Shown here: positions 25,501 to 46,920 of the stretch, piece after piece | Layout: the number at the start of each line of letters is the position of its first letter | Numbering within the stretch: position 1 is the first letter of the stretch | Assembly: GCA_033220425.1 (NCBI GenBank) | Contig: CM065647.1 | Span: 1,984,001-2,048,000 of the forward strand | Direction: 5' to 3' | Length of the DNA stretch: 64,000 nt | DNA from: Lepraria neglecta | Taxonomy: Eukaryota > Ascomycota > Lecanoromycetes > Lecanorales > Stereocaulaceae | Notes under the pieces: generated by a model | What the model was told of the DNA's origin: nothing | The model's input: the letters and a program-made list of their open reading frames with translations, nothing else | The model's database searches: none | Position numbers and translations under genes: made by a program

Positions 25501-25685
25501 TCGGTAGTACAAGGCTATCGAGGAGAGCTGCTTGCCAGCCTTCTGGCGGTGGTTGTAGGGGCATAGTGGTGGTGGCGGTGGGGGAGGACTATTTTGCAAA
25601 TAGTAGTGTTTTTGCTTATGAGATCTTTTGAAATGTTTACTCGTGCGTCGATTGGTTCGGATAATGCGGAAGCTAGTACTCCCGC

Positions 25686-25764
25686 AGGGTGTACGCGTAG
25701 TGAATCATGGGTGTACGCGTAGTGGGATAGGGTGTACGCGGAGTGAGTTGGGGTGTACGCGCAG
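25686..25764 (-). repeat. MULE right terminal inverted repeat
   Basis: Inverted copy of 24530-24607, ending GGGGTGTACGCGCAG, with the same four spaced boxes. Confidence 0.9.
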
Positions 25765-25887
25765 GAGAAGCCATCCAAGCTCAACGCCTCGACCGGTCCA
25801 GGCACCCAATTCATTATCACTTGCGTCTGTCCGCTTTTCTTCTCTATTCCTTTCATGATATGATTCTTTGGAAACAATAACGCAAAT

Positions 25888-27756: not shown

Positions 27757-27906
27757 TTTGAGAAAAATTCTGAGCGTCAACCGCTAATGGTTTTCGGAGT
27801 TTGACGACCGGTGGGACGGCGCTCAGGAGCAATCTTGTCCACGCCATTTGGAAAGTTTATAATCAATGAATCGTTCGTTCCATGCTCCATCTTTCATACG
27901 TTATAC

Positions 27907-28486
27907 CTATAACTTCTCCCTCTCCTCCCTCACAGCCTTCATACACCAATCCCCATCAACAAGCACACACCAGCCCTCCCCGCCTCTCCCTCCGTCCCCG
28001 CCTACCCCAGCCTTGAACTCCCGCTTCGCATACTCCAATCCCTCGTCATCAAAGCTGCCCGGTTGTAGCCAGACAGCAGGCACGCCTGCCTCCTTAGCTT
28101 CTTTCAATACTTGCTTGGTGACTGACGGCTGAGTGATTATACTGAGTGAGGTTTCCGTAGGATGGGGGAGCGCTGAAGGCGAAGGTATGGTGGGATAGCT
28201 TGTTGAGGAGATGGAGATGGAGGGGCGGGAGGGCGTGAGGGGGGTCACTGGGAGGGAGTGGGCGTGGTACCAGTATAGCACTAGGGTAATTCGTCAGGAG
28301 TCGTCTTCAGTCGGTGTTGCCCAGAAGAACTTGCCTTTGTAGCCGAACTTGTGGGGAGATTGACTCGCGCCTGAAGCGGAGGCATGTCAGTATGTTAAAA
28401 CTGTGAGATCTTATACTGGAGCAGGAGCTCTGACCTGCGACGGCGAAATACTTGGAGCTGAAGAATGTTTTGGCTGCTGCTTCCAT
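27907..28486 (-). CDS. CoA-binding domain protein (CoA_binding_2)
   Basis: Three minus-strand exons, 28486-28435, 28370-28335 and 28280-27907, give 153 aa. The N-terminus MEAAAKTFFSSKYFAVAGAS has the start of a Rossmann-like CoA-binding fold, and VPAVWLQPGSFDDEGLEYA is the family's conserved C-terminal block, as in bacterial YccU. Small proteins of this family are thought to bind CoA or NAD; no reaction is known. Intron 2 (28281-28334) uses a GC donor (AAAG before GCAAGT) and a CCCTAG acceptor; the conserved sequence on both sides supports it. The gene faces the methyltransferase gene across 189 bp. Confidence 0.85.
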
Positions 28487-28675
28487 CGTGATCTTTCGAG
28501 TCCGAGACTGTCAGACCGAGCTTCAACGTTGACCAGAAACCCACAGCTCTGGGTTGGTCGGTACGGCCCGCTAGTGTGCTGCAATGTGATGTATTTGGCA
28601 GATGCTGTGACGTAGAGCTCGTTGCTTTGAAGGCAAGAGCGTCTTCTCTCTCAAAGCGATTGCCCAGTTCTTAGA
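28487..28675. promoter_or_regulatory. 189-bp divergent promoter
   Basis: Lies between the start codons of the CoA-binding gene (-) and the methyltransferase gene (+). Shared control is inferred from spacing only. Confidence 0.4.
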
Positions 28676-29615
28676 ATGGCACAATTCGCGTGCGTTCCTC
28701 CTTCTACTTGTTGGCCACAAGTACTGATCCCCACACAGGAAGTCTACTTTCTCGCATGCCTCGTATGCCGCTTTCCGTCCATCGTATCCTCCATCTCTGT
28801 ACAATACCGTTTTGGCCTATCATCATGGCCCAAGGAGCAGATGCGTTGATCTTGGCTGCGGCCATGGAGTCGTTGCTCGCTACTTGTCAGGTTCTTTCTC
28901 GCAGGTCATCGGTACAGACCCATCGGACGGTATGATTGAGCAGGCTCTAACTTCCACATCACGAGCGGAATATCCGAACGTCACCTTTAGAAAGTCAGCA
29001 GCAGAGAGCTTAGCATTCCTCGAGGATGAAAGCGTGGATCTTGTCGTAGCAGGACAAGCAGCACATTGGTTCGACCAGACCAAATTATGGCCAGAGATGA
29101 AGAGGATCTTAAGGAAAGGCGGCACTGTGGCATTTTGGGGATATAAAGATCACGTCTATGTGGATTACCCCAAAGCTACCAAGATACTCGACGAATTTTG
29201 TTATGGTGACAATGCTCTGGGCCCATACTGGACACAACCAGGCAGATTTATAGTCCAGAACAAGCTGCGAGACCTCCAGCCGCCTGTCAGCGACTGGGAC
29301 GATATCCAGAGAACCGAGTATGAACCTGGAACGGAAGGACCACGGAGTGGAGAGGGTACAATGTTTTTGAATAAACGGATGAAGCTTGGAGAGAGCATGG
29401 CCTATGTAAGGACGTGGAGCTCTTTTAGTGCATGGCAAGACAAGTTCCAGAAGAAGAAGCGAGATGACGGTCGAGAAGGAGACATTGTGGATGATGTGTT
29501 CGAGGAGATGAGATCTGCAGAGCCAGATTGGAGGAGAGATGGAGAGTGGAAAGAGAAGGAGGTTGAAATTGAGTGGGGGAGTGGCTTGTTGCTGGCAAGA
29601 AGGAAGTATAAGTAG
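28676..29615 (+). CDS. SAM-dependent methyltransferase, Tmt1/Crg1-like
   Basis: Two exons, 28676-28689 (14 nt) and 28739-29615, give 296 aa. The tiny first exon encodes MAQFA and joins to KSTFSHASYAAFRPSYP, the normal family start. The class I methyltransferase fold is clear: motif I VDLGCGHGVVARYL (about residues 42-55), the acidic loop TDPSDGMI, and VDLVVAGQAAHWFD. Fungal relatives include the trans-aconitate methyltransferase Tmt1 and the cantharidin methyltransferase Crg1; the substrate cannot be read from sequence. The C-terminal third (WSSFSAWQDKF, ending LLLARRKYK) fits this group. The intron is 49 nt. Confidence 0.88.
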
Positions 29616-29889: not shown

Positions 29890-31351
29890 ATGTCGTCCAT
29901 CGCCACATATACAGGCGGCACGACAGCAGACCAGCCTCCAAGTTTTGGCGTTTTCCTGGAATTATCTCATTGCGAGTTGCTCTCCTTTCTGATGGTGGCT
30001 CAGACAGAATACACTCCCCGCTACGAAGTCAGCAATAACGGACGCGGTGGTGGCAACGCGCTCGTCCAGATGATATATCTCGACAAGCACCGCGAGGAAT
30101 TACAATTCGCCTTCAAGAGATCCCGTTCAGATGCGATTTGGGGCCAGAAGGAGAGGCTTCGAAAAGCAATCTACGAATTGGCTGTTTACGACAACGTCAT
30201 TGTCAAGAAGCATCCCAATATCGTCGATCTGACCGGTATCACTTGGTCTATTGACGTTGAGACTGACTCAAATAGGGCTGGAAGCCGTATTGTTTACCTG
30301 TGCTGAGATTTCGTCCAACAGAGCTTGGCAATCTTGCCGAGGTTTTGACTGCTCATCGCGAGGTATGATTTGCTCAGAGGCTACATCTTTGTCTCCACAT
30401 TGGGCGTGCCATAGAGACATTGCACTCCCTGAGTAAGCTGACACTTTTCCCCATCTGTCGTTCGAACGCTGGGAGCATTGGAGAGGCGCTTTCTTCCAAA
30501 CGTAATATTCAGCTTTGTAGTCAGTATCCGGTAAACAAACCATTGAACTGATGGAGTCGATTTTCATATTGGCTCCTGCGCTGGTACCGATGGGAAAGGA
30601 TTGGTGGCGGTCATGTTTCATTCAATCCAGCGCTCACATTTAGTGCTACATAGCCTTAATGTGTAAGGAACTAGCAACGTTCCCTTTGGCAGATATTGTG
30701 TACGGCGACTTGAAGCCGAAGAATGTACTCGTCTTCGAAGAAAACGGTCACCCTGTAGCCAAGCTGATCGACTTTGATTGCTCATGCTTCGGCTTGACGG
30801 ATTGTAGTCTTGTATCAATCGCAGGCACTCCTGGCTGGTTGGCTCCCGAGTTCGTTCGACGGAATCCGCATTGTACTCTCGGAGAAGCAAGAAAGGCAGA
30901 TATATACTCCTATGGGAAGTTGTGCGCCTGGATCCTATATATGCACGTATTAGATATCAAAGACTTCACCAAGAATCAGGGCCGTGTGTCTGGCCTTGAC
31001 TACGAGTACTTCGACTTTGTCGGAGTACTAAATCAGCTAGAACTTCCGCAACGCTCCCCGAATAGCACCCAGGGCGTGCGGAGTTTGGGTACTAAGGTTT
31101 TGTCATTACTCGAGAGGGTTTTTGCAAGTACATTTATCGGAGACCCTGCAAGACGATTCGACGAAGTCTTTCAAGCTGTGGCGATGTTGAAGCGTATGAT
31201 ATACCAATTCGAGACCGCGAACGTAGTTGAACTAACGTGTGTATCACTAATTGAGCCGTTCGGGGCGTATGAAATACCAGATCATGCTGATACCGACCCA
31301 GAAGCGATTGCCACCGTTCTCAAGATTATATCCGAGCCACAAGCATTCTGA
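29890..31351 (+). pseudogene. Broken protein kinase gene
   Basis: Kinase subdomains occur in order but in shifting frames. From the ATG at 29890: a Gly-rich stretch, AFKRS with the ATP Lys, an alpha-C Glu and HPNIVDLTGITWSID. A one-base shift near 30270-30285 moves the frame to LPVLRFRPTELGNLAEVL; an in-frame TGA at 30366-30368 follows (a CGA could have become TGA), then RLHLCLHIGRAIETLHSL. A 260-nt gap (30433-30692, GTAAGC..GGCAG, five times the local intron size) precedes YGDLKPKNVLVF, IDFDCSCFG (DFD for DFG) and GTPGWLAPEF. The last 220 residues are intact to the TGA at 31349. A GTCGAT donor near 30221 could avoid the shift but would remove conserved residues. The family resembles kinase-like proteins common in fungal accessory regions. 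Confidence 0.7.
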
Positions 31352-31444
31352 GAACGAGCATGGGTATGCTTTCTAAGCTATGGCAAGTCTTAGCCTACTA
31401 TGTATGACCCTTGAACTATCGATCATACCTTGAGTGAGACGCTG

Positions 31445-33093
31445 ATGTCTTCAAGCTTTTGTCCAGGAGATCAGTGCAGACAGCGCATAGCGCAAAAATC
31501 TTCGCGACGGCTGAAACATCTCATCTCCTCCCAGCCTTTGACTTTCGGGCAAAAACAGATGATCTTCCTCACTAAAGGGGTGTTGGTCCAGGTTGTCCCG
31601 CTTCTGTCTTTTCTGATTTTGCTACTCGTGTTTACTCTTTTCTGGGCCACGGGCCGCCTGGTCTTCGATTCTCCCTCTGGCTTATTTCTAATCTTCCTGT
31701 GCGGTGCGGTGATATATTGCTATTTTTTCATTGGTCTGACTATCGTTATGATCTTCCTTCAGGACCACGTGCGCGTGAAATTGCTCCCTGAGACTCTTGA
31801 GGAGGATCTTCGTACATTTGAGCTCGGTAGTATTCGAAAGTGCAATCGAATCCTCGAATCTTTCACTAAGGGGGCACACGTGCCGTCTATGCCAAAGGTA
31901 CAGTTGTGATCTGTCCCTTGACGTGGCAAATGCTAATCAAGGCCTCAAAGTTGCCTGAAATCTTCCCATTACTGAATCGGCTCCATTACCTTATTCGAGT
32001 TCAGATAGTGAGCGAGCTGACGGAACGAGTCGAGTGCTTCAAGTGTCGACAGCTAGCTAAGCCTTATTTACACCTTTGTGAGGAACATGCATTAGGGACG
32101 TCAAGACCAGAACCTGTGGCTCGGACTGACACTTCTAAGCGACTCTTCAGACTCCTGGGGCGGACTAAAGATTATGACAATGACTACTACGTTTCACTCC
32201 CGGATCTGCCTCAAGAAGTAGTGTCTTCCCTCCTAGTCGATCGTGTGGATCAATATACCGTCGACGAATTACCCAAAGCGATCCAAATTCTGTTCCAAGA
32301 AACAAAAGGCAAATTAGACAGTGGATACACTCCCAGGTCTATTCAGGTCCTTTACAGGCTCTTTAGTCTCATTGGGCGCTATGAAGAATCAGAAAGATGC
32401 CACAAGAATGCACTAGGTATGAAAAAGCCTTCAGAATGGAGGGTTGGGTAGTCTTCCGCCGCTAGTATGCGCGACGCAGAAAATGCTACTAGCGGTAAAA
32501 AGATAATGAGGCGAAAGCGAAGGCGAGTCCAACTTGAGGAAGCAGAGAGCAATCTGTATACTTTCTCATTGGTTGAGACTTTGGAGACTCAATGCGAATT
32601 TGACGACGCAATCGAAGTTCTATTAAAAACTAGATCGATCACTGTTGGGCCCAATGGCCTTTACATAGAGCGTGAGACCGGTGGCGAAAGGTTTCATACC
32701 CACCAGATTATCGATGCTCTCAACCTCCTGATTCGACTCTTCATCGAACAAAGCAACTTGGAGAAAGTGAGAGACATGGGCCAACATCTAGATCTGCAGG
32801 ACACTCTGCATTCTCATCCAATTTGGGATAGCAAAGTTCTCGACTGTTTCAAAGGTGCAGAAAAATTAGCTTCTGCTAAGCTCGCTCAGAGACAGTATCA
32901 AGGTGCCGCTGAGATCCAGAGACGACTGTTGCAGACGTCGCTGGAATTCTTTCCCAACGACAATGACAGGATCAGAAACATCGAGGCTCAGCTGGCTTTG
33001 AGCTTATCACATTACAACGAGGCTCGCGCGATCGAAGAGGCAGAAAGACTCCAGCTCAAGTTTATTATCGTAACTTCCAAAAACCTGTTGTAG
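31445..33093 (+). CDS. Membrane-anchored TPR-like protein, function unknown
   Basis: Inferred exons 31445-31897, 31942-32416 and 32480-33093 give 513 aa. Introns are 44 nt (GTACAG..GCTAATC..AAG) and 63 nt (GTATGA..GACGCAG); the second acceptor is weaker but keeps the phase. Residues about 45-70 and 80-105 are two hydrophobic segments. From about 240 the sequence reads as degenerate helical pairs (RYEESERCHKNAL, CEFDDAIEVLL, YQGAAEIQRRLL), typical of TPR-like repeats in fungal kinases and NLR proteins. It starts 93 bp after the kinase pseudogene in the same direction, and the two could be parts of one ancestral gene. I recognise no named family. Alternatively exon 3 is a separate gene starting at 32467. 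Confidence 0.5.
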
Positions 33094-33945
33094 CGCCAAT
33101 TGCATCGGTAAATAGCGCGTGTACATACCAAAAATCCGACAATATCGGCTTTTTGAAAGGTATCTGTTATTCTACCATATAGAGTATTATAAAGCTTCCC
33201 AGAAAGGAAATTATGACTCTATAGTTTAGTGTAGCGACTATCCAGAGCCCTAGTACTAATTGCTACGTCCCTGTCACCCGAACCTCGCTGTCACCCCCTA
33301 CTATGCCCCTATATAGTAACCTTCCACCGCCTATGAACACTCGCCGCTATAGGCTCCCTACTTCGCCGTCTATAGCCCCCTCCGCTACTTCGAACCCCCT
33401 AGCAGCCCGCCCTAAGCCCTCCCCTAAGTATCTAAGCCGAGTGTCCAAGGTAAAGAAGCCCCTACTAGCAAAATAGAAGAAGGCACCCTTATCCAAATCA
33501 GCTACTACTATTACCCCTACAGGTTAGAGTTAATAGGAAGCTCAGATCTAGAAGGATAATAAAGAAGACGTTATAGCTACTGCCTAGGAGGAAGTCCTCC
33601 GCCTGGAGTACCAGAGCTTCTATAAGAAGTACCGCTATATAATTAATATAGACTTACAGGATATATCTGGTGAACTGGGCCCCTTATAGATGTTATCTAG
33701 GGGGAAAGAACGATATAATAAGGTATTTACTAAGGCGGAAAAGATATATATAGCAGCGCGGGCTACTGCTATATAGGATGAATTCAAAATAGTAGGATAT
33801 TTAGTAGAGTAGTTAGTCTATTTTGAAAAGATCGAGCTCTTTAGAGACTCTACTATATATACTATAGGAGGCGAGGAACGTCTAGACTAGGAACTCTGGT
33901 ATACTAAGCTTTATATAAGGGTCTAGAGTATATATAGGCTCCCCT
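33094..33945 (+). pseudogene. RIP-degraded coding-like stretch of unknown origin
   Basis: Marks the sharp start of RIP-type sequence. On the plus strand a frame broken mainly by TAG and TAA runs from about 33290 to 33940 and reads as a Pro/Ser/Lys-rich head and a helical, charged tail. I do not recognise the family; it may be a transposon ORF. Confidence 0.35.
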
Positions 33946-35095
33946 TACGCGTACACTCCAATTCTATAGGCGTATACCCTATTATACTACGCGTATACCC
34001 TCAGAACGAGATATATAATCTACTATATAATTTACTCCTAAATAGAGATACCTCGTTCGCCGTAGATTAACAAAATTCCGAATATATAATATCGATCTAT
34101 TTCAGTCCAAATCGTTCAAAAACGACGTCTTTGCAGCTAAAACTTTTCTCCTAGTATGCGATCTGATTGGTCGGAGCTTGTATATAAGCTTGCTACCATG
34201 CGTTAGGGTCGTAAGCACCCCTATATACTACCCTATAGCTACTGTAGATGTTGACCGTCGACTTGTTGCCACGAGCTCTCCTACTGCAGGTAAGCCTCAG
34301 CGCTACTATCGCCGCCCCCCGAATACGCTGACTCTGAGGGCGCTGTCGAGCTGGCTGGCTTGGTGGAGCACTAGCTCCGCCCCGCCCTCCACCGTAGGCC
34401 TGCCCTAGTCGAGCTCTCTAGCTTGGTAAAGTACCTCTACCTCCTCTTAGTATAGATATAGTAGTGCCTCCTCTTTTAAAGAACGCGTCAGCCTTAGTAT
34501 TTACCTCTTCGCGAGCTATCTAGCTTACTATAAAGGCGGTGTTTATCCTAGCTATAGCAGCTTAGCTAGCGGTAATTATATCCCGTATATCTTTAACGTA
34601 TTTAAATCTAAACGGTTATCGCTAAGTAGATTCTTTAAAAGCTTATAACTAAGTACGCTTTCTCTTCGTTGGACTCTTCTTATTATACTTCTTATTAAAT
34701 ACCCTAGATAGTCTACCTTTAGGCTTAATAATAGCTAGCTTAGTAACTTATAGATATACTTCTACCTCTTCTTCAGCGATAAGCTCTAACTTAGAAGTCT
34801 CTAACTTAGCGGAGAGGTAAGGGGCGGAGGGAGGAGGTAGGCTTACTAGTAGTAGGCTTAGTAACGGAAAGCTTATTAGTAGGCGAGGGCTTGGTAGTAA
34901 AAACCTCGCTGGTATAGTTATCTTAGTAAGGCCTAGACTAGAGTCAATATACCTAGTACTTCTGCCTATTCTTTCGCCTTAATATTATAGATATCGGAAG
35001 CTTTAAGGAGAGGGTTTTCTTTATCCGTTCCGAGACGTAGAGAGGTAAGAATCTTAGATAGCTTAGAGCCTACTAGGCTACTAGAAGATTAGGGA
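33946..35095. mobile_element. RIP-degraded, longer MULE copy
   Basis: Starts with a decayed left inverted repeat (GCGTACACTCC, GCGTATACCC boxes, 33950-34000) and then follows 24750-25200 closely: shared blocks include ATCTGATTGGTCGGAGCTTG and AAAACGACGTCTTTGCAG. Differences are largely C-to-T or G-to-A. It carries about 0.7 kb (roughly 34300-34970) that the first copy lacks, so that copy is an internally deleted relative. The right inverted repeat was not found; similarity stops where the NLR remnant begins. Confidence 0.75.
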
Positions 35096-35099
35096 ATAG

Positions 35100-35890
35100 C
35101 TATACAACTCTATAGATAACGGCGTTAAAGATATACGGACCCTAGTTATCTAGGAGCTCGGCGGAGCGGGGAAATCGTAGCTAGTACTTAACTATATCTA
35201 GGAGTATTAATAAGATTACTTAGCTATTTTCTAGATTAAAGACGGATCTAAAGAGTTAATCGAACGTAACTATATCTAGATCTATCGGCTACTATATAAT
35301 CGCCTACTCGGTATAGACTAAAAGATAGTAAAAGTTAAAGATACGGTACCTATAGTAAAGAGCTAGTTCTACGGGCGAGAGGGGCGATAGCTAGTCGTTC
35401 TAGATAGTATAGATACTATTAACAACGATTAAGATAAATTCTATATCGACCTAGAATATTTCCTGCCTGACACGTCTAGAGTATATATTATAATTACCTT
35501 ACGGAGCTTAATAGCTAAGGAGATAATAGCGCTAGAAGCCGTCGAGGTAGCGGATATAGAGCTACTAGAAGCGATAGAGCTATTCTAATAATACGCGAAG
35601 ATAATAGAGAAGAGCCAAGATATTATAATAGAAGTAGCTTAAATTATAAAAGAGCTGGGATACTTAGCCTTAGTAATTACCCTAGTAGGTTTATATATAT
35701 CGGTAACGCCTTATTTATTATCTAATATCCGGAGATATCTCCCTAAGTACTAGTAGCGGCGAAAAGAGCTACTCCGCTAGCGGCCTTAATAGTATATCTA
35801 CCGGTATAGAGAGAGCGTTTTAAGCACGTAGGAAGTATCCTTTAATATAAATACCTATTAATACCTAGCGGTATCTCGATTACTTAGTAT
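35100..35890 (+). pseudogene. RIP-killed NLR nucleotide-binding (NB-ARC) domain
   Basis: One frame reads through a whole STAND/NB-ARC domain if TAG and TAA are taken as former Gln or Trp codons. Walker A is LGGAGKS at about 35157-35177; Walker B is LVVLDSID near 35400; then IIITLRS (sensor), EVADIELLEA, KELGYLALVITLVGLYISV and a SVLST[stop]EVSFN motif whose stop fits the conserved Trp. These are the family landmarks of fungal NB-ARC/NACHT NLRs that control heterokaryon incompatibility and other immune-like responses. More than fifteen stops rule out function. N-terminal effector and C-terminal repeats are not joined to it. Confidence 0.8.
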
Positions 35891-36038
35891 ATGTCATGGT
35901 TCTACATACATACCTCATGGGCGCATATCTCAGTCTACCATGCGGTACATCTCAGCACTAGCTTGGCGCATGCTTATATACAGAATTTGCTCCATAGATT
36001 TCTCATCATCATATATATTCAATACATTATTCAAAACA
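35891..36038 (+). repeat. 148-bp direct repeat, copy 1
   Basis: Two or three mismatches from 36336-36483. Starts ATGTCATGGTTC and ends ATTCAAAACA. Counted from the second base it has TG..CA ends, as an LTR would. Neither copy shows RIP. Confidence 0.85.
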
Positions 36039-36335
36039 AACGCCAAGCACTGACGCCATTGGCTATCCCCGAAGACATGAGCTTATGCATCCTACTATTA
36101 GTGGTGGTGCCTGGACCTCAGTGCTAGTCGCCAGATTCAGTGCATTTGGCTGAGTCTATATGAGCGATTTGGCTACACGTATACTTCTGCAATTGCAAGC
36201 TCGCGCTATGCCATATACCGCTTGAGCATATATATGAGCTGGAATACTATGATATGATTGGTCAATCTATGCTATGGACCTCTGCTATCGCTGTGGCAAC
36301 GAGGACGTCGCCATTTTTTCTCTTTTTGGCGGCAA
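36039..36335. other. Spacer between the direct repeats
   Basis: About 300 bp without coding content. A T-rich tract (near 36313-36327) precedes copy 2. If the repeats are LTRs this would be the interior of a TRIM-like miniature element, but no primer-binding site or target duplication is convincing. Confidence 0.4.
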
Positions 36336-36483
36336 ATGTCATGGTTCTACATGCATACCTCATGAGCGCATATCTCAGTCTACCATGCGGTACATCTCAG
36401 CACTAGCTTGGCGCATGCTTATATACAGAATTTGCTCCATAGATTTCTCATCATCATATATATTCAATACATTATTCAAAACA
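36336..36483 (+). repeat. 148-bp direct repeat, copy 2
   Basis: Same sequence as 35891-36038, offset 445 bp, same strand. Confidence 0.85.
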
Positions 36484-36699
36484 TCTGCATAGAGAGCTCT
36501 TTTGCTTCTTTCTCCTGACAAATCCCGTTTCCTTCATTTATTTGCTAAGGAGTACTCTAGAGATTTTCAGAGTGAGGCCTGTCTTTGTATTTAAGACAAG
36601 AAGGGTTTACCCTCCTACCGTCCAAACCGCCCAACCGGCCAGCCTTGTAGGGCTGCCGCCCGGAATTATCGATATTTCTGCTCCGGGGCACAACGCTAG

Positions 36700-37367
36700 A
36701 GCTCTCCTAGGGGCGCAGGCAGCGAAAATTTGCAGAGCTCTACAATTCATTCTCCCCTGACGGCCGACTTCTGGCCCATGTATCTGATGACAGCACTGTC
36801 AGACTCTGGGACCCGGCTATAGGAGCCTCCCGAGGCACGCTCGAAGGTCATTCAGATTGGGTCACTGCGGTTGTCTTCTCTCCTGTCAGACTCTGGGACC
36901 CGGCTATAGGAGCCTCCCGAGGCACGCTCGAAGGTCATTCAGATTGGGTCAGGGCGGTGGTCTTCTCCCCTGACGGCGGGCTTCTGGCCTCTGCGTCTTC
37001 AGACAATACTATCAGACTCTAGGATATTAAAACAGGGACTATAATTCAGCAAATTGAACATAATTATAACGGATATCTCTCCTTTAATCAGGATGGGTCC
37101 CAGCTGGAGATAGACGGGAGACTTCTTCAGATACCAGCATCTTCTCTAGAAGTTTCTCCCTATATGCAAGGTCTAGCTGATACGTCATACACAATAGATG
37201 TCAAGAGGGAATGGGTGACTTATAAGGGTTATAATGTTCTTTGGCTTCCACCTAACCGCCGTCCAGGTGTGTACACCATCCGCAATAATATCCTAGCGCT
37301 AGGAAATGGGTCTGGTCGAGTTACATTTCTTAAATTCAGTGTGATGGTTGCTCCGTCCTGTACCTAA
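36700..37367 (+). pseudogene. WD40-repeat C-terminal fragment of an NLR-type protein
   Basis: Reads as WD40 blades: FSPDGRLLA, VRLWDPAIGASRGTLEGHSD (at least two copies), and a last blade ending near a RIP-type stop (36,840-37,030 region), followed by the non-repeat tail typical of fungal NACHT-WD40 proteins (REWVTYKGYNVLWLPPNRRP) with a normal TAA at 37365. Two blades are nearly identical in DNA (36796-36864 and 36883-36951, 87 bp apart), the pattern of recent repeat shuffling; the spacing is 29 codons, not 42, so 13 residues of a blade are missing. No start or NB domain in frame precedes it. Confidence 0.75.
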
Positions 37368-37667
37368 ATCTTATACATAACGAGCTGTTTCTAGCTACTT
37401 GGGATATTCTCATATATATGCCACTATGACGCCTCCTTGAGGTTACTAACTTAGAAGACTATATCTCTGGTTTCCGTGTATGAACCTACTCTAGTAATGT
37501 ACTGCGTACTTATTTTGAGGGACGACGCTTGATTGGGCAGCGGACGATTAGTTAGCGCCGTACCGCGGTACTTATAATTAATCAATCAATTCATCTATCG
37601 TCATGTCCCATATTTTCTGCTACCAGGAGCACAGTTTGACTTCACTCGTTTCTATTGTTAGTAGCAT

Positions 37668-38527
37668 CTAGAATTGGAAGTGGGTGCCCGAACTAGAGGG
37701 GGGCATGCCAGAATTAGGGAGGAGGTTACCAGAATTGGGGGGAAGGGCGCCAGAAAGGAAGGGCGTGCCAGTTCTGGAGCTGGTGAGCCAGTGTTGGGGA
37801 TTTACCCTATAACGAACTACGGAAACGCAATGAGAGTCTTGGATGTGGTTTTTTCAACAGAAATATGTTCGATCTGACAATTCAAAGTTCGAACATCCGA
37901 TCGGCTCTCTCGATTGACAGGCCGTTATTAAGACTTAAAGATCCGCGTACCCTTTTCTCCGTATATAAACCGCTGGTCTAATGTCCACACTTCGGTCAGT
38001 CTTGCGCGGAGGCGATGCCTTGCCAGGAATATTCAATGAGCCACGCAATCGACGTGATGTTTACTGGTTCCTTGTTGCCTATATAAGAAACGGTGGTGAT
38101 CCGGCATGGCTCTGGGCGTCCGGTTCTTGCATAATCTTTTTTCGTCTTGGTGCAGTCATTGTTATTAACCACCCTGGACAGGCCCTTCTGTCGGAGAAAA
38201 TTATGTTTGTCGATTAAAGATACTTTTGTCGAGGTTCGGGGAGAACGGCTGATATCCTTTCGAAAGCCTGTATAATTCAACGCTTTAATTTATTGAATTT
38301 ATCAAGTGGCCAAGGCTCTGTTCTGGAGGCGCTAGCAAAACTTCCATTCTCTCGACAGAGCGAGTCTTTGTTCAAGGTTCGCGACGCAGATCGCATTCCG
38401 AGATATACCTTCTTCTTGGAGACAAAGAAGCCTGTCTCCATTAATAGAGACCTCTAAAGGAAAAGAGCAATAGGACCTCCAAAGTGTAAACGAGACCCTT
38501 CCCCAGTTCTGGACTTACCAATTCTAG
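37668..38527. mobile_element. Possible small element with G-rich inverted ends
   Basis: The left edge has CTAGAATTGG and CCAGAATTGGGGGGAAGGG-type units repeated about every 20-25 bp (37669-37800). The right edge has the inverse, CCCTTCCCCAGTTCTGG then CCAATTCTAG (38497-38527). An 860-bp non-autonomous DNA element is the simplest reading. No transposase is inside. Confidence 0.35.
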
Positions 38528-38945
38528 AACTCTTAAGAAGTTCTGATCCCTTTTGTCTACTTGAAGTTCACGTGATGAACGAGCAAAAAATGAGCCACCT
38601 TTACGGGGTCAAACGCGTGCCCAATTTCTTTCCCGTCAGCAGACTTTTGTGGTTGATAACTCACAGGGAAGGGTCGGTGACTGAGGAACCCTTTCTAAAA
38701 AAGACTACCTTCCGCTTGGCAGCAACATGTCGCGGTTGTGTGAAAGAGCGTGATGGACATTGTGAAGATTTCATAGCCTTTCCAATCCTCGTAGTACTGT
38801 TCATCGAAGAAATCTTTAAAACTTTGAATAACCCTACGTCCCTGGCCTCGAAATCCTGCCACGGACTCAGGACCTTGTGGCTGCCCTGCGACTGACTGCT
38901 TGCTAGTATCCGGACTCCAATATCGCAGCTCCTTCCAATCGACCG

Positions 38946-39413
38946 ATGGACTCAAGTCAATCGGGTTCCAAGAAACGAGCCAACTCGAGCAAAGAATCGG
39001 AGGGTTCCTCGAAGACCAGGAAATCCTCTGCCTATGATGGTGACTTCGAGCAGCATCTCATTGACCATGGCATACACATGAACAATCGTGCTCCGAAACC
39101 AAGAAATTGGGCAGAAATCAACAGCAGAATGGCACAGCCAAGGCCGTCTCTTTCGCCATCGCGCTTCTCTGAGACCGCATTTGAAACCTTCCAGCAGACC
39201 AATGAAGAAGCTTTGACCGAAAACACGGTTATGTACGCGCGTCGTTCACGGTGTTTGAAAGCCGCATATCGACGCATGCGGGGGAACCCATCGGATCGGT
39301 TATACGCAAGACATTGGTGGAGGAAGATTGCGGAGGACGCAGAACTGGAACCAGGGAGGGAGCAGTCAAGTCGGGCTGGGGTTTACGGCGTGGACAACCC
39401 ATATAATAAATGA
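38946..39413 (+). CDS. Hypothetical protein, N-terminal part of a fungal DUF family
   Basis: 155 aa from the ATG at 38946. After a Ser/Lys-rich start it has FEQHLIDHGI, PKPRNWAEI and the motif PRPSLSPSRF, which I associate with a widespread family of large fungal proteins of unknown function, often in accessory regions. Full members are several hundred residues; this copy diverges after residue 85 and stops early. A second short open stretch (39427-39591, another frame) follows directly and could be a spliced or shifted continuation. Base use is normal, with no RIP signs. Probably a truncated family member; activity unknown. Confidence 0.5.
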   Translation: MDSSQSGSKKRANSSKESEGSSKTRKSSAYDGDFEQHLIDHGIHMNNRAPKPRNWAEINSRMAQPRPSLSPSRFSETAFETFQQTNEEALTENTVMYARRSRCLKAAYRRMRGNPSDRLYARHWWRKIAEDAELEPGREQSSRAGVYGVDNPYNK

Positions 39414-40362
39414 GTATTGAAAGTTGAACAAAGAATACACGTGCATGTACGAGGGGATGAATGATCTGGTGTTCGAGCGGAGCGCGGAGATGATTTTGTA
39501 TGTGGATTACCTATCGCTGGAGGCAAAGGAGATCATTGAGGGGGTGCCGTTAGTTGGGGCTGTTGTGCGCAAAGTGATTGTAGATATATAATCTTCTAAT
39601 AAACAGGATGAAATAAAAATGACAGCTTAGTGGTGAAGATATACGTGCACGGTATAGTAGAGACGCGAGTAGGAGATATGATGATGAGATAGACAACGAG
39701 ATAGATTGAAGTTAGACCGCCGGGAGGGAGAGTCAGACTAAGATGGCGTGAGCAAGGCGGGCGCCCCCACGGCAGTTAGGGGGTCGAAGGTCCAATGAGG
39801 GAGGCACGAGCGAATATAGGCACGAAGGAATGGTGGGTGGAGCGCCAACGGTACCCACTGCGTTTCAGGGAGAAAAGGTGCCAGCCTTTTCTATATCAAT
39901 ATGGGAGCGGAGAGAACCGGTCGGTCTCGTCAGAGCTGGCGCAACGGCTGAGTCACAAAAGCGTAGCTCCCTAGCATAGCATACGGATCAACGACTTGTC
40001 CTCGCTCCAAGGCTTCGGGCACGTACGAAATGCAATTGTTTTTTAACCCACTCTTGGATGCATGAGGTTGATACCAAGAGTGTAGCATTGTAATGATCGA
40101 AAAGGATTGTAGGATTATGTTCTTTGAGTACACTGAGGGCATACAGGTCTCCCGAATCGAGTACTCGCTTTCACACTACCGCATCTTTAGACGCCATCAT
40201 CAAGACGGAAAAGTTGTCGTCAGATTGATCGCGTTCGCAACTCTTGCCCGGATGATGAGGGGGAAAATTGAGTGGGAAGCGAGCAGAGCCTAAGGTTGTT
40301 AAAACTAGAATAATATAGCACTAGATTGGCTGTTGTATAGATATTGGTATTCTAAGTACGAG
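39414..40362. other. Intergenic stretch without clear genes
   Basis: Apart from the short open stretch near 39427-39591, only chance-level frames. No RIP pattern. Confidence 0.4.
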
Positions 40363-42230
40363 TCATGGTGCATCTTGTGTATTGCTTTGGACGTAACCGG
40401 CCCTCCTCGGTTGCAGGGGAAACTCATTTGGTTGTGTAGCAGTCTCAGTAATTGATTCCGTATCATAGTCATCGCGCTCGGCTGCATGTGCATATCCTTG
40501 ACTTAAGCGGTATGAATTCGAACCATCGTCTGTGGACAGAGGTTGAAGGTCTTGGGAGGAGTCCGCTCTTAGTCTCGGCGTCTTCGTCTTGCTAAGGGTT
40601 AGAGCTGTGACCATTAGCTTCTCTTTTCAGCTTCACGGGACGATGGGCTTACCTGTTTGCAGGTGAAGGTAATCAACAACAGGTGGTACCCAAACCGCAA
40701 CGGCAACGATTTGTCCGAAAGTCCACGTATGAAGGTCGACCAATCCCAGGCCAATGAAGCTGTAGAACATCACGGCTTGGTAAACCAATCCCACAAAGAA
40801 GATAGCCGATATAACTAAATATGCGGGGGAACTACGGAGTACCTGGAGCATCCACTCTGGTACGGATGCAATGTGTGGAATGTCCAAAACTTTGTGGGGT
40901 CGATTTCCTCCCCACCCTTTTCCTGACCATGATAATCGGAATTGGGAAAAAGCCAGAACGAGCAGGGAAATTGTGCACCATGCCCAGATCCAAGGTGCAA
41001 GCTTGATGCCCGTCCAAGCGGCTGTACCATATCTTTGAATCAAGAAGGCAGGCGGGCTGTCATCCTGAAACGGTAGACAGATTCCAATACCAGTCATACC
41101 GCCACAGGATTGTATACCTCCAAGAGATTTGTAAGCCGGGGCCTTCAGAGCAGTTCCATGCCCTTTGATCCCATTGAGGTAAGTGATGCCAGCCCAAAAG
41201 ATGACAGTGTTGAGGAGGTAGCTGACGCTTGTCAAAACCAAGGGGTACCAGGATTCGAGATCGTGGTTGTTCATGATCATTAAGGTGAAGATTTGAGGTA
41301 GGAAGCCGTTGATGGAAACTGGAAGTAGACCGAAGGCGTTCAGTGGATCCAGGGTGAATGGATTGGAGAAGAAAGCGGCCACGGCCAGCGGAATGCTAAA
41401 ATAGCACTGAGCAGCGTGGAAGGCAGTAATGCTTTGCAGCAGACTTTCACGGAATTTCGAAGTTTGAGGCTTTTGTAGTCGATGACGATTTCGCCAAGCC
41501 AAAAAGCTACCGACAGCCAAAGCCACCCAGCAGAGAATGACTATTGACGATTGGATGACATACGAAGTTGTCACCTATCTCAAATCAATATCCGAGCATA
41601 TACATCCCATTCTAGACTCACCCCGATGCCAACAATATCTTGATTTCCAAACGGAAGGCCTGTGATGTTTAGGCATAGACTTCGTATGCATTCACGAGTC
41701 CCGGCTAGCTGCGTCACTGTTCGTTTCTCGAGGAGATTTACGGCCGCGCAAGGATCAGTGCAATTGTCCGGATGTCTAGCTTTCGCACATGTGTCCGTCC
41801 AGCATTGAGTTGAAGCAGCAGCAACAGCTCTGAGATTTTCCTGAGTACTGTTGGTGAAAAAGGACCGAAATTTGTCAGCCTCCACTTTGGGAGCGATTTC
41901 GTCTTGGAGAGCCTGAGTGATGTTCGCGAGACCAGCGCAGAGTGGCCAAAGTGTGATGTTAGGCGGAGTGCCGTAAGCGGTCTGATTTGCAATGGCTATC
42001 CCGCCCGGTAGTGGTGCGTACAGTCTTTCAAGGTCCCGACAGTCCGTCCAGCAGTCCCCAGATGGACACAGCTGGTCGAATGGTTGAGCAGCAAACTGGG
42101 CCGAACTCACACATCGAACGTCTTTTTTGGTCATCTGGCAAAAGAATTGGTCGGGTGTGGGCAAGTATATCCCCGTTGGAGGTATACTGGTGGTGTTGAA
42201 CGTGTGGTCAACATCGTCGACCGCACTCAT
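40363..42230 (-). CDS. Multi-spanning membrane protein with Cys-rich ectodomain
   Basis: Three minus-strand exons, 42230-41622, 41574-40653 and 40604-40363, give 590 aa; introns are 47 and 48 nt (GTGAGT..GATAG, GTAAGC..CACAG). Residues 1-203 form a Cys-rich, N-glycosylation-rich region (NTT, NIT, NQT, NST, NCT sites) that looks extracellular. Seven or so hydrophobic segments follow from about 208 to 505, with a charged cytosolic tail of 85 residues. No signal peptide is seen at the assigned start, although the ectodomain needs one, so an upstream coding exon may be missing. I do not recognise a characterised family; relatives are found as hypothetical proteins in filamentous ascomycetes. No RIP signs, so it may be active. 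Confidence 0.7.
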
Positions 42231-42699
42231 TCTGAAGTTCGGCTCAATGACGACTGGAGGTTCAAGGCTGCTGTCACAGAAAAGAATTTTGGAAGTATTT
42301 CGAGAGACGCAAAGTCAAACACAAGCGCGATGAAAGCTATGTGGCAATGTTTGACATAACTCAACGGGTTGAGGCACAGAGTGAGGCGTGGTGCATCAGA
42401 CTTCAGCCCTAGCCTTCAGCCCTAGCCTTCAGCTTCTTCTTGTTATTTCAGAACCCAATGAAAAGGATAGTAACTAGTAAGTGCAAGCGCCAAGTGTTAG
42501 CTGAAACAGTGGCGCCGTCAAACGTCCGCCATTGGTAAGTGTCACGTCACACCCTGCAGGGTGGACAAGCAAGTGGTTTTATGCCCTACTCCACCCAGGG
42601 AGAGCTAAGACTCATCACAGGCACGCCTCAGGGCCGCTCACCCCCGCCTTAAAGCAGCCGCTGCTCACCTACGAGGCTAGAAGCGGAAGGGAAAACGTT
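42231..42699. other. Intergenic, with a short direct repeat
   Basis: A 15-bp unit, TTCAGCCCTAGCC-like, occurs in tandem near 42405-42433. A missing first exon of the membrane-protein gene could lie near 42240-42360. Nothing else seen. Confidence 0.4.
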
Positions 42700-43057
42700 A
42701 GTGTAAAACAGGCGAGAATGCCCAGTCTCCTGTCTGCACTCACTTCGAGGACCGAAGGCGATATGGACCGATACGCTTGCTCAGAGATTCTCGATTGTAT
42801 GGAAGCCTATTATAAGGTAGGAACGCTTCATCTGATACCTGGAAAGCTGACTTACAATCGGTCAGGTTGCGATGAAGTCAGTCATCGACAACGTGGCAAT
42901 CCATGCAATTGAATGCTGCCTCATTGCTTGCATCAGTGACCTACTCTCGCCGTCACACGTTCTGCAGATGGATCAAGAGCTTGTCCGTGGGATAGCAGCC
43001 GAATCTCGCCAAAATCAGGCCCTCCAAAACCACGACTTGACCTTTCGAACCGCATAG
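42700..43057 (+). pseudogene. Orphan dynamin GTPase effector domain (GED) fragment
   Basis: Exons about 42700-42816 and 42866-43057 around a 49-nt intron (GTAGGA..CTGAC..GTCAG) read as a dynamin-superfamily GED: DRYACSEILDCMEAYYK joined to VAMKSVIDNVAIHAIE, ending with IAAESRQNQALQNHDLTF and a stop at 43055. The GED normally closes an 80-90 kDa dynamin or Mx-like GTPase, but no GTPase or stalk region lies upstream. The frame is open and the splice site intact, so the 5' part seems to have been lost by deletion or insertion rather than by point mutation. Confidence 0.75.
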
Positions 43058-43410
43058 CAGATTTTGAATCAAAATGTGGTAGACAGCTCGACAGCTCATC
43101 AGCCTGATGAATGGTGTAGAAGGCTATGCTCCATGAACGTAACGCGCCCCGCAGGTCGCCCTGGCGTTTTTGCCGCGCTGGGGTTCAAGGACGCTAGAGG
43201 CTCAGCCGTCGCGTGAATCCTGCAGCAGCATCCACCTGTAACGATAATATAAGTCTTCCTCTGCCGCTGAATTAGTAGCGTCACAGCTTATCAGAGCGAA
43301 GCTCTAGAGCGTCTCGGGGCCTTGTGATCAGCTACCCAAAGCCAAGGCCTCAGAAAGTGACCAAGCAGTAAACAACTCCTATATACCTATATGATACGCC
43401 TTGATAAACG
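43058..43410. other. Short intergenic stretch
   Basis: About 350 bp; upstream region of the NLR remnant. No gene seen. Confidence 0.4.
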
Positions 43411-44940
43411 ATGGAGCATGGAGACTATACCGTAGGATGGACATGCGCGTTGCCGACGGAGCTGGCTGTAGTAGTAGCCATGCTAGACGAGCGCCATAAC
43501 CCTCTCCCGCAGGACTCTCACGACTATAACAATTATACGTTAGGACGGATCGGTATGTATAACGTGGCTATTACGTGTTTGCCATCCGGTATAACGGGGA
43601 CTACTTCTGCTGCGATCGTGGCGAGTTATATACGTTCTACATTTCCCTCGATCAGGTTTAGACTGATAGTTAGTGTCGGTAGTAGAGCTCTAAGCGCGAA
43701 GAATAACATTCGACTGGGCGACGTAGTGATTAGCAAGCCGGATTAGACGTCTGGAGGGGTAATCTAATACGACTTCGGAAAGATGGTTCAAGAAGGTCGA
43801 TTCGTACGGACAGGGTCATTGAATCGACTACCGATCGTATTACTCAGTGCGGTGAACACCTTATAGGCTAGATATAGAATGGACGAGCCGGAGCTCACAA
43901 AATACCTTGCAGATATAACGTTGAAATATCCAAAAATGCAGGAAGATAGAACGTATCCGGGTCTATAGCATAACCCGTTATTCGAGGTATAGTATAATCA
44001 TCAAGAAGACGACAATACGTATACCAGTTGTGATCGCCTTCATATAGTATCTCGATCTATCTAGAGCGACGGTATTTCTACAGTTTATTACGGCTTGATT
44101 ATATCAGGGAACTAAGTAATAAGGGATAGCGTAACTCGAGATAGATTACGACGAGAGCTCGATATACTATACTTTAAGATAGAGGCGGCGGTCTAATAGA
44201 TAACTTTCCGTATCTAGTAATCCGAGGGATATACAATTATACCGATACACACAAAAACAAGCGTTAGCAGCCTTATACGGCGGCGGTAGCGGCGGCGTAT
44301 ACGAAGGAGCTCCTCTGTGTTATACCGGTAAACCGGGTAGTCCGCACCTGTACCATTAGGGAGACGAATATATAAATATATAAGTAGATTTATATAAGAT
44401 CTTCTTGATAATATAAAGGGAGGAGGAGGAGGAGGGGGAGGAGGAGGAGAAGAAGATAGATCTAATTAGAGAATTAAAGTTATTCCTATTAAGATAATAT
44501 AGTACCGGTAGACTCAGTATAGCGCTGATTCACCTTACCAGCTCAATCCCCTTCGATTAAACCTATATTCACGGTACTATTTCGAAAAGATAATAAGTTT
44601 GTGGATCGAAAATTCATCTTCTTGTAAATCGAGGAGCGACTTTACTTGTATTATTATATATTACTAAGCGGGATAGGAGGGATTAGATATTATCTCTTCT
44701 ATAGATAGTTTCTTATCTATACTAACTATAGTTATTAGAAAGTCTCAGATCGCTATTAAATACGCGTATCGATTCCGGTAGTCTTATCTGCAGAGCCATA
44801 TCTTCTAGATATATATAGCCAATCCAACGCAGTTTGTATAGGCATATCAAGATATTGTACAAAAGCTTAGCTTTAGTATATATACTTGCTAATTAGTTTA
44901 TATAAGAAGAACTATATTTATTATATACTATTACTAACTC
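43411..44940 (+). pseudogene. RIP-killed NLR: PNP_UDP head plus NB-ARC
   Basis: Starts with an intact ATG and 111 codons of a nucleoside-phosphorylase-like domain (TVGWTCALPTELAVVVAML, GTTSAAIVASYIRS, RLGDVVISKPD) before a TAG at 43744. The frame then continues to about 44340 through TAG/TAA codons, with YDFGKMVQEGRFVRTGSLNR, SCDRLHIVSRS and RDSVTRDRLRREL visible, ending KELLCVIPVN. From about 44570 an NB-ARC start follows: FRKDNKFVDR, GIGGI, a roughly 55-nt decayed intron, KSQIAIKYAYRFR (Walker A, with Gly changed to Arg as RIP would do), and ANPTQF. This layout is a common fungal NLR class in which the PNP_UDP domain is the effector or ligand-processing head. Confidence 0.82.
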
Positions 44941-45039
44941 TATAGAGTCGCGTGCAGAAAGTAAATACACTTTTCGTGCGCGAAATACTACGCTAACCGC
45001 TTTAGGCTTAGTGCAAGGGCTATCGCTAGAGATTCTACT

Positions 45040-45426
45040 ATATAATACTAACGCTCCTATTTGAAATCGACGGCGGTAAGGTCCACTACAACATCTAAAT
45101 CCCTATCCAATTATACTCGAAGATAGTCTAAGCTTGTATCTAAAAGGGAAGTCGTTTGGGGCAATTGGTTTGGTTATTCCGTTAGTAACTATATCTAAGG
45201 AGTTGATATAATCGACGGTGAGTTCGCCGGTTTCTGAGACCATTTCGCGTACCAAATGGAACTTATTGCGTATATACTTTGTTCGAGTATGATTCACCGG
45301 GTTTGTAGCAAGCTTGATCGCTAATTAGTTGTCTCCTATTAGCCTTATAGGCATTAAGTCGTCTTTATTATAGGCGTTTACTTAGGCTATATATTCAGCC
45401 TCTACAGTTGAGTCGGTATATAGTAT
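45040..45426 (-). mobile_element. Ty1/Copia RNase H C-terminal fragment
   Basis: On the minus strand STVEAEYIA, RTKYIRNKFHLVREM and DYINSLDIVTNGITKPI are the end of a Copia polyprotein, terminating at 45103. It is cut at 45427 by another sequence that starts TGTCAAGGGCC like an LTR. Confidence 0.75.
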
Positions 45427-45550
45427 CTGTCAAGGGCCGGCCTAGAGTCAAGTTATAGGGGTAGAATAGACGATAATATAGAATCTAAGGAAGGAAGGCC
45501 ATATAGGCGCGACGAAGGATCTATATAGATAGGCGGCTACGGTAGCCCCT

Positions 45551-46014
45551 TGTTACGATCAGGAAATATAATCAAGGATGCGCCCAAGGAGCGTAGCGCC
45601 CGTCATGGTCCGAGTCGGCGAATTAGTATCCGACTCGGATAGGACTCTGAAAGATTGGCATATTAAGCGATAAGCGTAGGGAGCGCAATAAGCGTAGTAT
45701 AATTAGTACGATCAAAGCGATTATAGATAATAAGCGCAATAAGCGCAATAAGCGCAATAAGCGCTTGGTATAGATTTCGTATATCTATATATATAGAGTA
45801 CTACTTACTACTTAGAGTATCGTGCTTAACTTCCTATTTATTATTTACTATATACGATAGATCTCTTAGGCTAGGCACTAAATATATATTATCTAATTAT
45901 ATACCAGACCTACTTAGTATCGCTTAAAGCCTACTTTACCTCTTATTAGTTATACCTCTATCCCTATTAAGAATTAATCCATAAATATAATACTAGAATA
46001 TATAGTTTATAATA
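45551..46014 (+). repeat. LTR of Gypsy element A, left copy
   Basis: 464 bp starting TGTTACGATC, closely similar to 53590-54070 in direct orientation, with mostly C/T and G/A differences. Contains a 9-bp tandem (ATAAGCGCA) of about four units near 45730-45765. Its end is RIP-mutated. Confidence 0.85.
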
Positions 46015-46706
46015 CTTTAAATGCTCTTAAGGATAAATACTATACTAAGAGACCCTAGGGCTAATACCCTAAGCTCCTTAGGAGGGAGCGGATAATAATA
46101 ATAGAGACACCCGACTATTATTAAAGGAACTAGTATATATATTAAGATAGCCTAGCCCGACTTATACTATAGAGAAAGAGATAAGCTTAAGGGATAGCTA
46201 TCTCAGGTTAGTCTATACCTAGCTTTCTAGGGAGACTATATACCTACTTAGTAATATCTAACCTTCGCTATTACTTACTTATATAGAAGAGCCTAGAAGT
46301 AGATCGATATATTCCTAAAGAAATATATAGAAGAACTAGAAGATAACGATAATATAGAAGTTAAGTAGTAGATATAGAGTATAGCTATATTTAGACTCGA
46401 AATCCGCTATATATTTAGATCGTCTAATAAAGTTAATATAGTAATATAAACTATCTAGTACTTAACTTAGAAGAAGTCTATATTAGAGTATTCGACTTAG
46501 TTTTAGTAGTATATAGTAAAGACTAACTAGAATAATAATATATTAATAACTATATACTAAAGAGGTCTAAAGGATAATATTAAGGATAAACTTATAAGAT
46601 TAGGGATTATCTTAGATACCCTTAATAAGCTAATTAAAGAAGTAATTCAAATTAATAATAAGCTATTTAAAAGGACTAGAGAGAAAAGGTATAATAGAGG
46701 AGTCGA
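46015..46706 (+). mobile_element. RIP-degraded gag (capsid) of Gypsy element A
   Basis: Plus-strand reading with TAG/TAA as former Gln codons gives a capsid-like helical sequence up to about 46700, where a reverse-strand Gypsy LTR interrupts it. Confidence 0.55.
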
Positions 46707-46920
46707 TGTCAGGGGCCTGCCTAGAGCGAGTCGATAGGGGTGTAATATAACTAGAAGAACATATCTAAGGAGAGAAGATAGATATATGAAGCCTGCGCGT
46801 CTTAGAGGCGCGCTAAGCTGCTAGCCATGAGCGCTGAGCGATGATCGAACGTTCGATAACCATACTCCATACTACGCGTATCGATAACAACAGTAAGCAA
46901 GCAATGGCCAAGCCGTGACA
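46707..46920 (-). repeat. LTR of Gypsy element 1
   Basis: 214 bp with TGTCA..TGACA ends, next to the polypurine tract of the element. Confidence 0.75.

What the first reader, a model, noticed from the sequence alone, without database searches (positions are those of the whole stretch)
29890..44940. Graveyard of immune-type genes: kinase, TPR, two NLRs, WD40 tail and dynamin GED within 15 kb
Within 15 kb lie remnants of a protein kinase, a membrane TPR-like protein, an NB-ARC domain, a WD40 tail, a dynamin GED and a PNP_UDP-NB-ARC protein. NLRs are known in fungal allorecognition, and dynamin/Mx-like GTPases act in immunity elsewhere. Their clustering suggests a former defence or incompatibility island that was silenced. 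That the parts once worked together is inference.
Basis: partly seen in the sequence, partly recalled or inferred. Interest (0 to 1): 0.75.

Follow-up and report, generated by a model that had tools for sequence, protein, structure and literature searches.

The report
Fungal immune-gene graveyard beside mutated transposons
A 15-kb strip of a fungal chromosome, lying between ordinary genes and a large mutated transposon block, holds broken copies of several immune-type genes whose closest relatives sit in different places of the genome; it reads as a dumping ground rather than one lost defence system.

Summary
The listed pieces are real: a broken kinase, a membrane/TPR-like gene cut by a transposon, a RIP-mutated NB-ARC fragment, a NACHT-type WD40 tail, a dynamin C-terminal fragment and a PNP_UDP-type NLR. 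RIP is shown for two NLR pieces (PNP_UDP-NLR: 165 of 185 differences from its paralog are C>T/G>A).

The pieces match separate own-genome loci: C4:1.780 Mb (WD40 tail, dynamin piece), C4:3.025-3.035 Mb (HET gene, PNP_UDP fragment, two dynamins) and C1:4.265 Mb (PNP_UDP-NLR). Neighbour pairs recur, but the kinase's relatives lie elsewhere and dynamins are not near detected NLRs beyond chance (2 of 21 within 15 kb, 2.3 expected). Best reading: a heterochromatin-edge graveyard of accessory gene copies, not one silenced island.

A better lead came up: NLRs or dynamins lie within 15 kb downstream of DUF3435 recombinases (the Starship captain family) at 9 of 22 loci (1.5 expected; upstream 2), and the C4 paralog cluster is one of them. 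No DUF3435 was found in the window. Strains could not be compared.

The parts
112..29615 (.). Core-gene flank: YL1 protein, RRM protein, phospholipid-translocating ATPase, ketoacyl synthase, Sec7/PH protein, M14 carboxypeptidase, methyltransferase (28728-29615)
   Evidence: Pfam hits on all 7 ORFs scanned of 11 listed; composite RIP index negative in 29 of 30 one-kb bins from 1 to 30000
29890..31351 (+). Protein kinase, broken (frame change near 30300, in-frame TGA at 30366; 30433-30692 fits an intron)
   Evidence: Pkinase 5.5e-13 for 30644-31351; frames and splice test
31445..33093 (+). Two-TM, weakly TPR-like gene; open over 513 aa with two introns (31898-31941, 32417-32479) but its last codons are transposon sequence, so the true 3' end is lost
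   Evidence: transposon edge at 33066
33066..33936 (.). Repeat A, six copies listed at 88-93%; two C2 copies end in an 89-bp inverted repeat
33929..35072 (.). Repeat B with 72-bp inverted end at one copy (best copy 92%), RIP-mutated
35080..35887 (+). NB-ARC fragment, RIP-mutated: 138 C>T/G>A against 19 reverse; 58 of 79 CpA sites changed against an NB-ARC paralog
36037..36520 (.). Repeat C (best copy 96%)
36750..37503 (+). WD40 tail and 3' flank of a NACHT-WD40 NLR, cut at its 5' side; not RIP-mutated
   Evidence: PF00400 4.7e-21; 94.2% over 479 bases after the repeats to C4:1780284-1780762
37997..38649 (+). Dynamin fragment, P-loop side of the GTPase domain
   Evidence: 78% to C6:2194413-2193768, where Dynamin_N scores E 0.0015; 94.9% over 297 ungapped bases to C4:1781169-1781465
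38650..38895 (-). Tail of a 3'-5' exonuclease (EXD/RNase D-like) gene next to the dynamin fragment
   Evidence: 91% to C4:3034345-3034586; 26 of 42 residues matched at 38811-38924; paralog at C6 is DNA_pol_A_exo1 2.7e-11
38940..39593 (+). Unassigned truncated ORF
   Evidence: no Pfam hit
40363..42230 (-). Apparently open membrane-protein gene, 591 aa, two introns; no Pfam family
42690..43025 (+). C-terminal (GED-side) dynamin fragment, not RIP-mutated
   Evidence: 97% to C4:3029206-3028871; tblastn to dynamin residues 688-719, E 0.001
43027..43223 (+). Spacer upstream of the PNP_UDP-NLR; about 1.1 and 1.8 kb of the C4 copy are missing on its two sides
   Evidence: 97% to C4:3027775-3027579, 95% to C1:4268639-4268447; junctions
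43220..44870 (+). PNP_UDP-NLR 5' part, RIP-mutated, cut at 44870
   Evidence: 88.7% to C1:4266610-4264970; 165 of 185 differences C>T/G>A; 14 stops
44871..64000 (.). AT-rich RIP-mutated repeat block, running on to at least C2:2077500; 57867-64000 is a 6.1-kb repeat with 19 listed copies at 90-94%

Best explanation
The interval is a heterochromatin-edge graveyard. Between the last core gene (about 29.6 kb) and a block of at least 49 kb of RIP-mutated repeats, copies of accessory genes have collected: NLRs of three kinds, dynamins, an exonuclease, a kinase. Some arrived as short segmental duplicates of two adjacent genes (WD40-NLR tail with dynamin; dynamin end with PNP_UDP-NLR). Transposons then cut genes (33066; probably 44870), deletions removed middles, and RIP mutated the pieces next to repeats, fading towards 43220 in the PNP_UDP-NLR. 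Shown: the homologies, truncations, RIP direction and gradient. Inferred: that the strip is the receiving side, that RIP spread from the neighbouring repeats, and that the pieces never formed one system.
For: Different pieces match different loci at 91-98% once RIP-type changes are set aside. Junctions between differently sourced pieces are sharp at 37548, 38645, 43026 and 43222. RIP: 165 forward to 7 reverse, 126 of 239 CpA sites against 5 of 189 CpT; the C1 copy shows almost no RIP, and RIP-type changes per 275 bases rise 15, 27, 23, 34, 32 (of 260 compared), 34 towards the repeat block while 42690-43223 is clean. Left flank is core genes; right flank is RIP-mutated repeats. Dynamin-NLR proximity genome-wide is at chance.
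Against: Two neighbour pairs recur at other loci and dynamin, spacer and PNP_UDP pieces keep the order of the C4 cluster (the exonuclease tail is inverted), which is more structure than random dumping. An apparently open gene lies inside. Direction of copying is unproven: one genome only. NLRs cluster weakly. RIP could be direct rather than spread, since the PNP_UDP segment is itself repeated.
Confidence: 0.68

Rival explanations
1. Buried Starship-type cargo: the NLR and dynamin pieces arrived as cargo of a DUF3435 (captain) element, whose captain and boundaries are lost here.
For: The paralogous C4 cluster lies directly downstream of a broken DUF3435 gene (C4:3035563-3036640, -). Genome-wide, NLR or dynamin hits lie within 15 kb downstream of 9 of 22 DUF3435 loci (1.48 expected; two of the 9 flank one dynamin fragment) and upstream of 2; HET and P450 hits are at chance on both sides. 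DUF3435-NLR within 25 kb: 10 of 21, 3.7 expected, p 0.0016. PMC12134995 (passages) reports an NLR in Gaeumannomyces Starship cargo, and a table row in its cargo section lists a dynamin.
Against: No DUF3435 match in the window at E 0.01 or better; pieces of the C4 captain find only one weak hit, inside the core-gene flank (E 0.057). The nearest C2 hit is 1.2 Mb away. No element boundaries were sought. DUF3435 genes and NLRs may simply share accessory regions.
Confidence: 0.17
2. One former incompatibility island (kinase, NLRs, dynamins working together) was silenced in place.
For: Density of immune-type remnants; recurring pairs at two C4 loci; a HET gene in the C4 cluster; dynamins near HET hits 6 of 21 within 15 kb, p 0.014 uncorrected.
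Against: Pieces match separate loci; none of 12 kinase relatives is within 15 kb of a listed dynamin; dynamin-NLR proximity at chance; an unrelated open gene interrupts the strip.
Confidence: 0.1
3. The strip is chance company only: common accessory families that fell together, with no duplication of neighbouring pairs.
For: NLR and HET families are large (163 and 143 loci).
Against: Segmental matches carry two adjacent pieces in the same order at C4:1.780 Mb and C4:3.025-3.029 Mb.
Confidence: 0.05

Closest known systems
RIP-mutated, transposon-rich compartments with RIP reaching neighbouring genes (e.g. Cladosporium fulvum, PMC9453070, passages seen)
   Same: AT-rich RIP-mutated repeat block with C>T changes at CpA reaching an adjacent gene copy
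   Different: Here the affected piece is itself a duplicated NLR fragment, so direct RIP cannot be excluded; no effector gene is claimed
PNP_UDP / NB-ARC NLRs such as Aspergillus fumigatus hetA (PMC11138114, passages seen)
   Same: PNP_UDP-type N-terminus; the C1 paralog continues into a TPR array
   Different: The window copy is dead (14 stops, cut); no incompatibility function is shown; the paralog's NB-ARC was not found by PF00931
NLR clusters of Sordariales (PMC12258605, passages seen)
   Same: NLRs within 40 kb of each other; the paper reports 602 of 2349 NLRs in clusters
   Different: These are fragments from different source loci, mixed with dynamin and repeats
Mx proteins and fungal Mx-like dynamins
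   Same: The open C4 dynamin (C4:3031909-3034077) has its nine best solved relatives all named Mx (129 bits; best non-Mx 94 bits)
   Different: Only fragments in the window; no antiviral function known; the other C4 dynamin was not searched against solved structures
Starship elements (DUF3435 captains)
   Same: NLR or dynamin hits downstream of DUF3435 genes in this genome
   Different: No captain and no tested boundary in the window

Membership tests
Fungal PNP_UDP-NB-ARC NLR | PNP_UDP domain at the N-terminus | tested here: met
   E 0.007 (below cut-off) in the window piece, 7.5e-12 in the 88.7% identical C1 paralog
Fungal PNP_UDP-NB-ARC NLR | Intact NOD domain and repeats in one open gene | tested here: not met
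   14 stops in 327 codons; sequence switches to another repeat at 44871
NACHT-WD40 NLR | WD40 repeats | tested here: met
   PF00400 4.7e-21
NACHT-WD40 NLR | NACHT domain in the same gene | tested here: not met
   Present in the C4 paralog (NPHP3_N 7.5e-33), absent from six-frame scans of the strip
Mx-like dynamin | Complete GTPase domain, stalk and GED | tested here: not met
   Two separate fragments only
Mx-like dynamin | Closer to Mx than to classical dynamins | tested here: inconclusive
   Shown by sequence search for one open C4 dynamin; the window fragments are too short, and no tree was made
RIP-mutated locus | C>T/G>A excess at CpA against a less mutated copy | tested here: met
   43220-44870 and 35080-35887; not at 36750-38649 or 42690-43223
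Starship cargo | DUF3435 captain at the element's 5' end | tested here: not met
   None in the window; one beside the C4 paralog cluster
Starship cargo | Element boundaries and presence/absence between strains | not tested
   No strains available; boundaries not sought
Single silenced incompatibility island | Intact syntenic kinase-NLR-dynamin cluster in relatives | not testable with these tools
   No relatives held; within the own genome none of 12 kinase relatives is within 15 kb of a listed dynamin

The most novel reading that the evidence does not exclude
Mx-like dynamins, an EXD-type 3'-5' exonuclease and PNP_UDP-NLRs form a mobile nonself-recognition module of this fungus, carried behind DUF3435 captains; the window holds the RIP-buried remains of one such load, and the C4:3.023-3.037 Mb cluster is a younger, less decayed one.
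Probability: 0.12. Interest if true: 0.7.

Novelty: new member of a known kind. Interest (0 to 1): 0.35.

Why it matters
As it stands, the strip is a well-resolved example of how fungal NLR copies die: segmental copying, transposon insertion and RIP, with a long-open paralog to compare against. If the DUF3435 lead holds, NLRs and Mx-like dynamins would be travelling together on giant mobile elements in this fungus, which would give a mechanism for the fast turnover of fungal nonself-recognition repertoires that strain comparison can test.

Tried and rejected
Rejected: (a) genome-wide dynamin-NLR linkage: 2 of 21 dynamin loci within 15 kb of an NLR locus, 2.33 expected. One of the two is a Sey1-like GTPase by my reading of its sequence (recalled), not a dynamin. 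(b) My first control for NLR clustering (11 pairs against 9.2) was unfair, because only the real loci had been merged; with random loci merged the same way it is 11 against 6.2, p 0.04, and 30 against 20.8 within 40 kb, p 0.02. DNA search found no copy of 29700-33063. (d) A splice that rescues the kinase: 717 two-intron models are open, none keeps both hinge and alpha-E residues. (e) A plasmid-collection search with the membrane protein found nothing, as expected for a fungal gene. (f) tRNA and Rfam scans were empty. (g) The ORF at 38940 reminded me of a fungal family (DUF7924, recalled); Pfam does not support it. (h) Whether the AT-rich block is a centromere was not tested.

Limits of the counts: family hits are lower bounds (the tool scored 150 NPHP3_N and 151 HET matches); positions were typed into scripts as start coordinates; three HET rows and exon-level P450 rows lying within 5 kb of a kept row were left out; the unlisted HET match is missing; C5's length was set to 4.95 Mb from what remained of the total. 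The DUF3435 test was one of several looked at after the fact (16 distance tests), and two DUF3435 rows are below the curated cut-off. Papers: passages only (PMC12134995, PMC12258605, PMC11138114, PMC9453070); others only as listings. I found no paper joining fungal dynamins and NLRs; the library lacks most subscription journals.
Full report
Setting. The window is C2:1984001-2048000 of an unnamed 42.0-Mb genome in 11 contigs. RIP, HET genes, many NLRs and DUF3435 genes point to a filamentous ascomycete (inference). Positions 112-29615 hold core genes: all 7 ORFs scanned of 11 listed have clear Pfam hits. From about 44 kb the sequence is AT-rich and RIP-mutated to the window's end and on to at least C2:2077500, with normal composition at C2:2086001 (samples). 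It includes a 6.1-kb repeat with 19 listed copies at 90-94% identity. The finding lies between these two worlds.

What is in the strip. The kinase C-lobe is clear (5.5e-13). Its N-terminal part has a frame change near 30300 and an in-frame TGA at 30366. I take it as broken because none of 717 open two-intron splice models keeps both the hinge and the alpha-E residues. The next gene is open over 513 aa with two introns and two hydrophobic segments, has only sub-threshold TPR hits, and its last codons lie inside repeat A, which begins at 33066. Repeats A, B and C fill most of 33066-36520. Among them 35080-35887 matches NB-ARC loci at 73-76%, with 138 C>T/G>A changes against 19 reverse and 58 of 79 CpA sites changed.

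The WD40 tail and dynamin pieces. 36750-37503 is the end of a NACHT-WD40 gene whose fuller copy lies at C4:1775098-1780623. A dynamin fragment follows at 37997-38649. It contains the P-loop side, by homology to C6:2193768-2194413, where Dynamin_N scores E 0.0015. The same two neighbours, WD40 tail then dynamin piece, recur at C4:1779970-1781465, so they were duplicated together. At 38650-38895 the match changes to C4:3034345-3034586 (91%), which is the tail of a 3'-5' exonuclease-like gene on the minus strand (26 of 42 residues). Its 36% paralog beside the C6 dynamin fragment is a DNA_pol_A_exo1 protein (2.7e-11).

The open gene. 42230-40363 (-) gives a 591-aa open frame with two introns and no Pfam family, so the strip is not dead throughout.

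Dynamin end and PNP_UDP-NLR. 42690-43025 is 97% identical to the 3' end of a dynamin gene at C4, and 43027-43223 and 43221-43739 match the next C4 segments in the same order, with about 1.1 and 1.8 kb missing in the window. 43220-44870 matches a paralog at C1 with two long open frames, a PNP_UDP domain and a TPR array. Of 185 differences in 1636 aligned bases, 165 are C>T/G>A from C1 to the window, 7 the reverse and 13 transversions; 126 of 239 CpA sites are hit against 5 of 189 CpT. Without the RIP-type changes the two are 98.8% alike. RIP-type changes rise from 15 to 34 per 275 bases towards the repeat block, and 42690-43223 is clean. Since the C1 copy shows almost no RIP, spread from neighbouring repeats is the simplest reading; direct RIP of the duplicate cannot be excluded.

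Was it one island? The pieces have best matches at C4:1.780, C4:3.025-3.035 and C1:4.265 Mb, and the junctions between them are sharp. The C4:3.02-3.037 Mb locus holds a HET gene (1.4e-15), a PNP_UDP fragment, two dynamins, an exonuclease fragment and a broken DUF3435 gene. It keeps the order dynamin end, spacer, PNP_UDP seen in the window, with the exonuclease tail inverted. So real neighbour pairs lie behind the remnants. The kinase does not belong: its best own-genome relative is 36% identical, and none of 12 relatives lies within 15 kb of a listed dynamin, one of 12 within 15 kb of an NLR locus. Genome-wide, 2 of 21 dynamin loci are within 15 kb of an NLR locus (2.33 expected) and 6 of 21 within 15 kb of a HET locus (2.1 expected, p 0.014 uncorrected). 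NLR loci cluster weakly (11 pairs within 15 kb against 6.2, p 0.04). I therefore read the strip as a graveyard of accessory copies at the edge of heterochromatin.

The lead worth following. DUF3435 genes (38 matches, 21-22 loci) lie near NLR loci more than chance: 7 of 21 within 15 kb (2.4 expected, p 0.006) and 10 of 21 within 25 kb (3.7, p 0.0016), while HET and P450 show no excess. Orientation matters: 9 of 22 have an NLR or dynamin hit within 15 kb downstream (1.48 expected; two of the nine flank the same dynamin fragment), 2 upstream. That is the layout of Starship captains and cargo (PMC12134995, passages), and a table row in that paper's cargo section lists a dynamin. The dynamin family here is Mx-like, at least for the one open C4 gene tested (nine best solved relatives all Mx, 129 against 94 bits for the best non-Mx). 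The window itself has no DUF3435 match, so this stays a rival for the strip and a lead for the genome.

Verdict. Observation partly confirmed, with additions and corrections; interpretation partly supported; a new member of a known kind. The most novel reading, a mobile module of Mx-like dynamin, exonuclease and PNP_UDP-NLR carried behind DUF3435 captains, is not excluded (0.12).

Noticed in passing
own genome, e.g. C1:4646831, C3:1061438, C6:3007792, C8:441004, C4:3035563: NLR or dynamin hits lie within 15 kb downstream of 9 of 22 DUF3435 loci (1.48 expected), upstream of 2; HET and P450 do not.
   Followed up: partly
L034 (C4:3034502-3034930), L039 (C6:2192439-2193185), window 38811-38924: An EXD-like 3'-5' exonuclease or its remnant lies beside a dynamin gene or fragment at three loci; window and C4 are copies of one another, C6 is a 36% paralog.
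   Followed up: partly
own genome, DUF3435 hits: 18 of 22 DUF3435 loci lie on the minus strand of the assembly; unexplained, perhaps chance.
   Followed up: no
L035/L036, C4:1780762-1781119: The C4 copy of the WD40-NLR flank carries about 356 extra bases flanked by a 5-base repeat (37499-37503 matched on both sides), like a small insertion.
   Followed up: no
L048 (C1:4059001-4069000) and L034 (C4:3028871-3034077): Two head-to-head dynamin pairs, partly alike at 77-83% DNA identity, suggest the pair duplicated as a unit.
   Followed up: partly
L038 (C1:4268803-4269201): A second PNP_UDP-like reading frame, divergent from the long-open PNP_UDP-NLR at C1:4266425 (by eye).
   Followed up: no
window 45729-45764 and 58027-58150: Short tandem repeats (9-bp and 40-bp units) inside the RIP-mutated block.
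   Followed up: no
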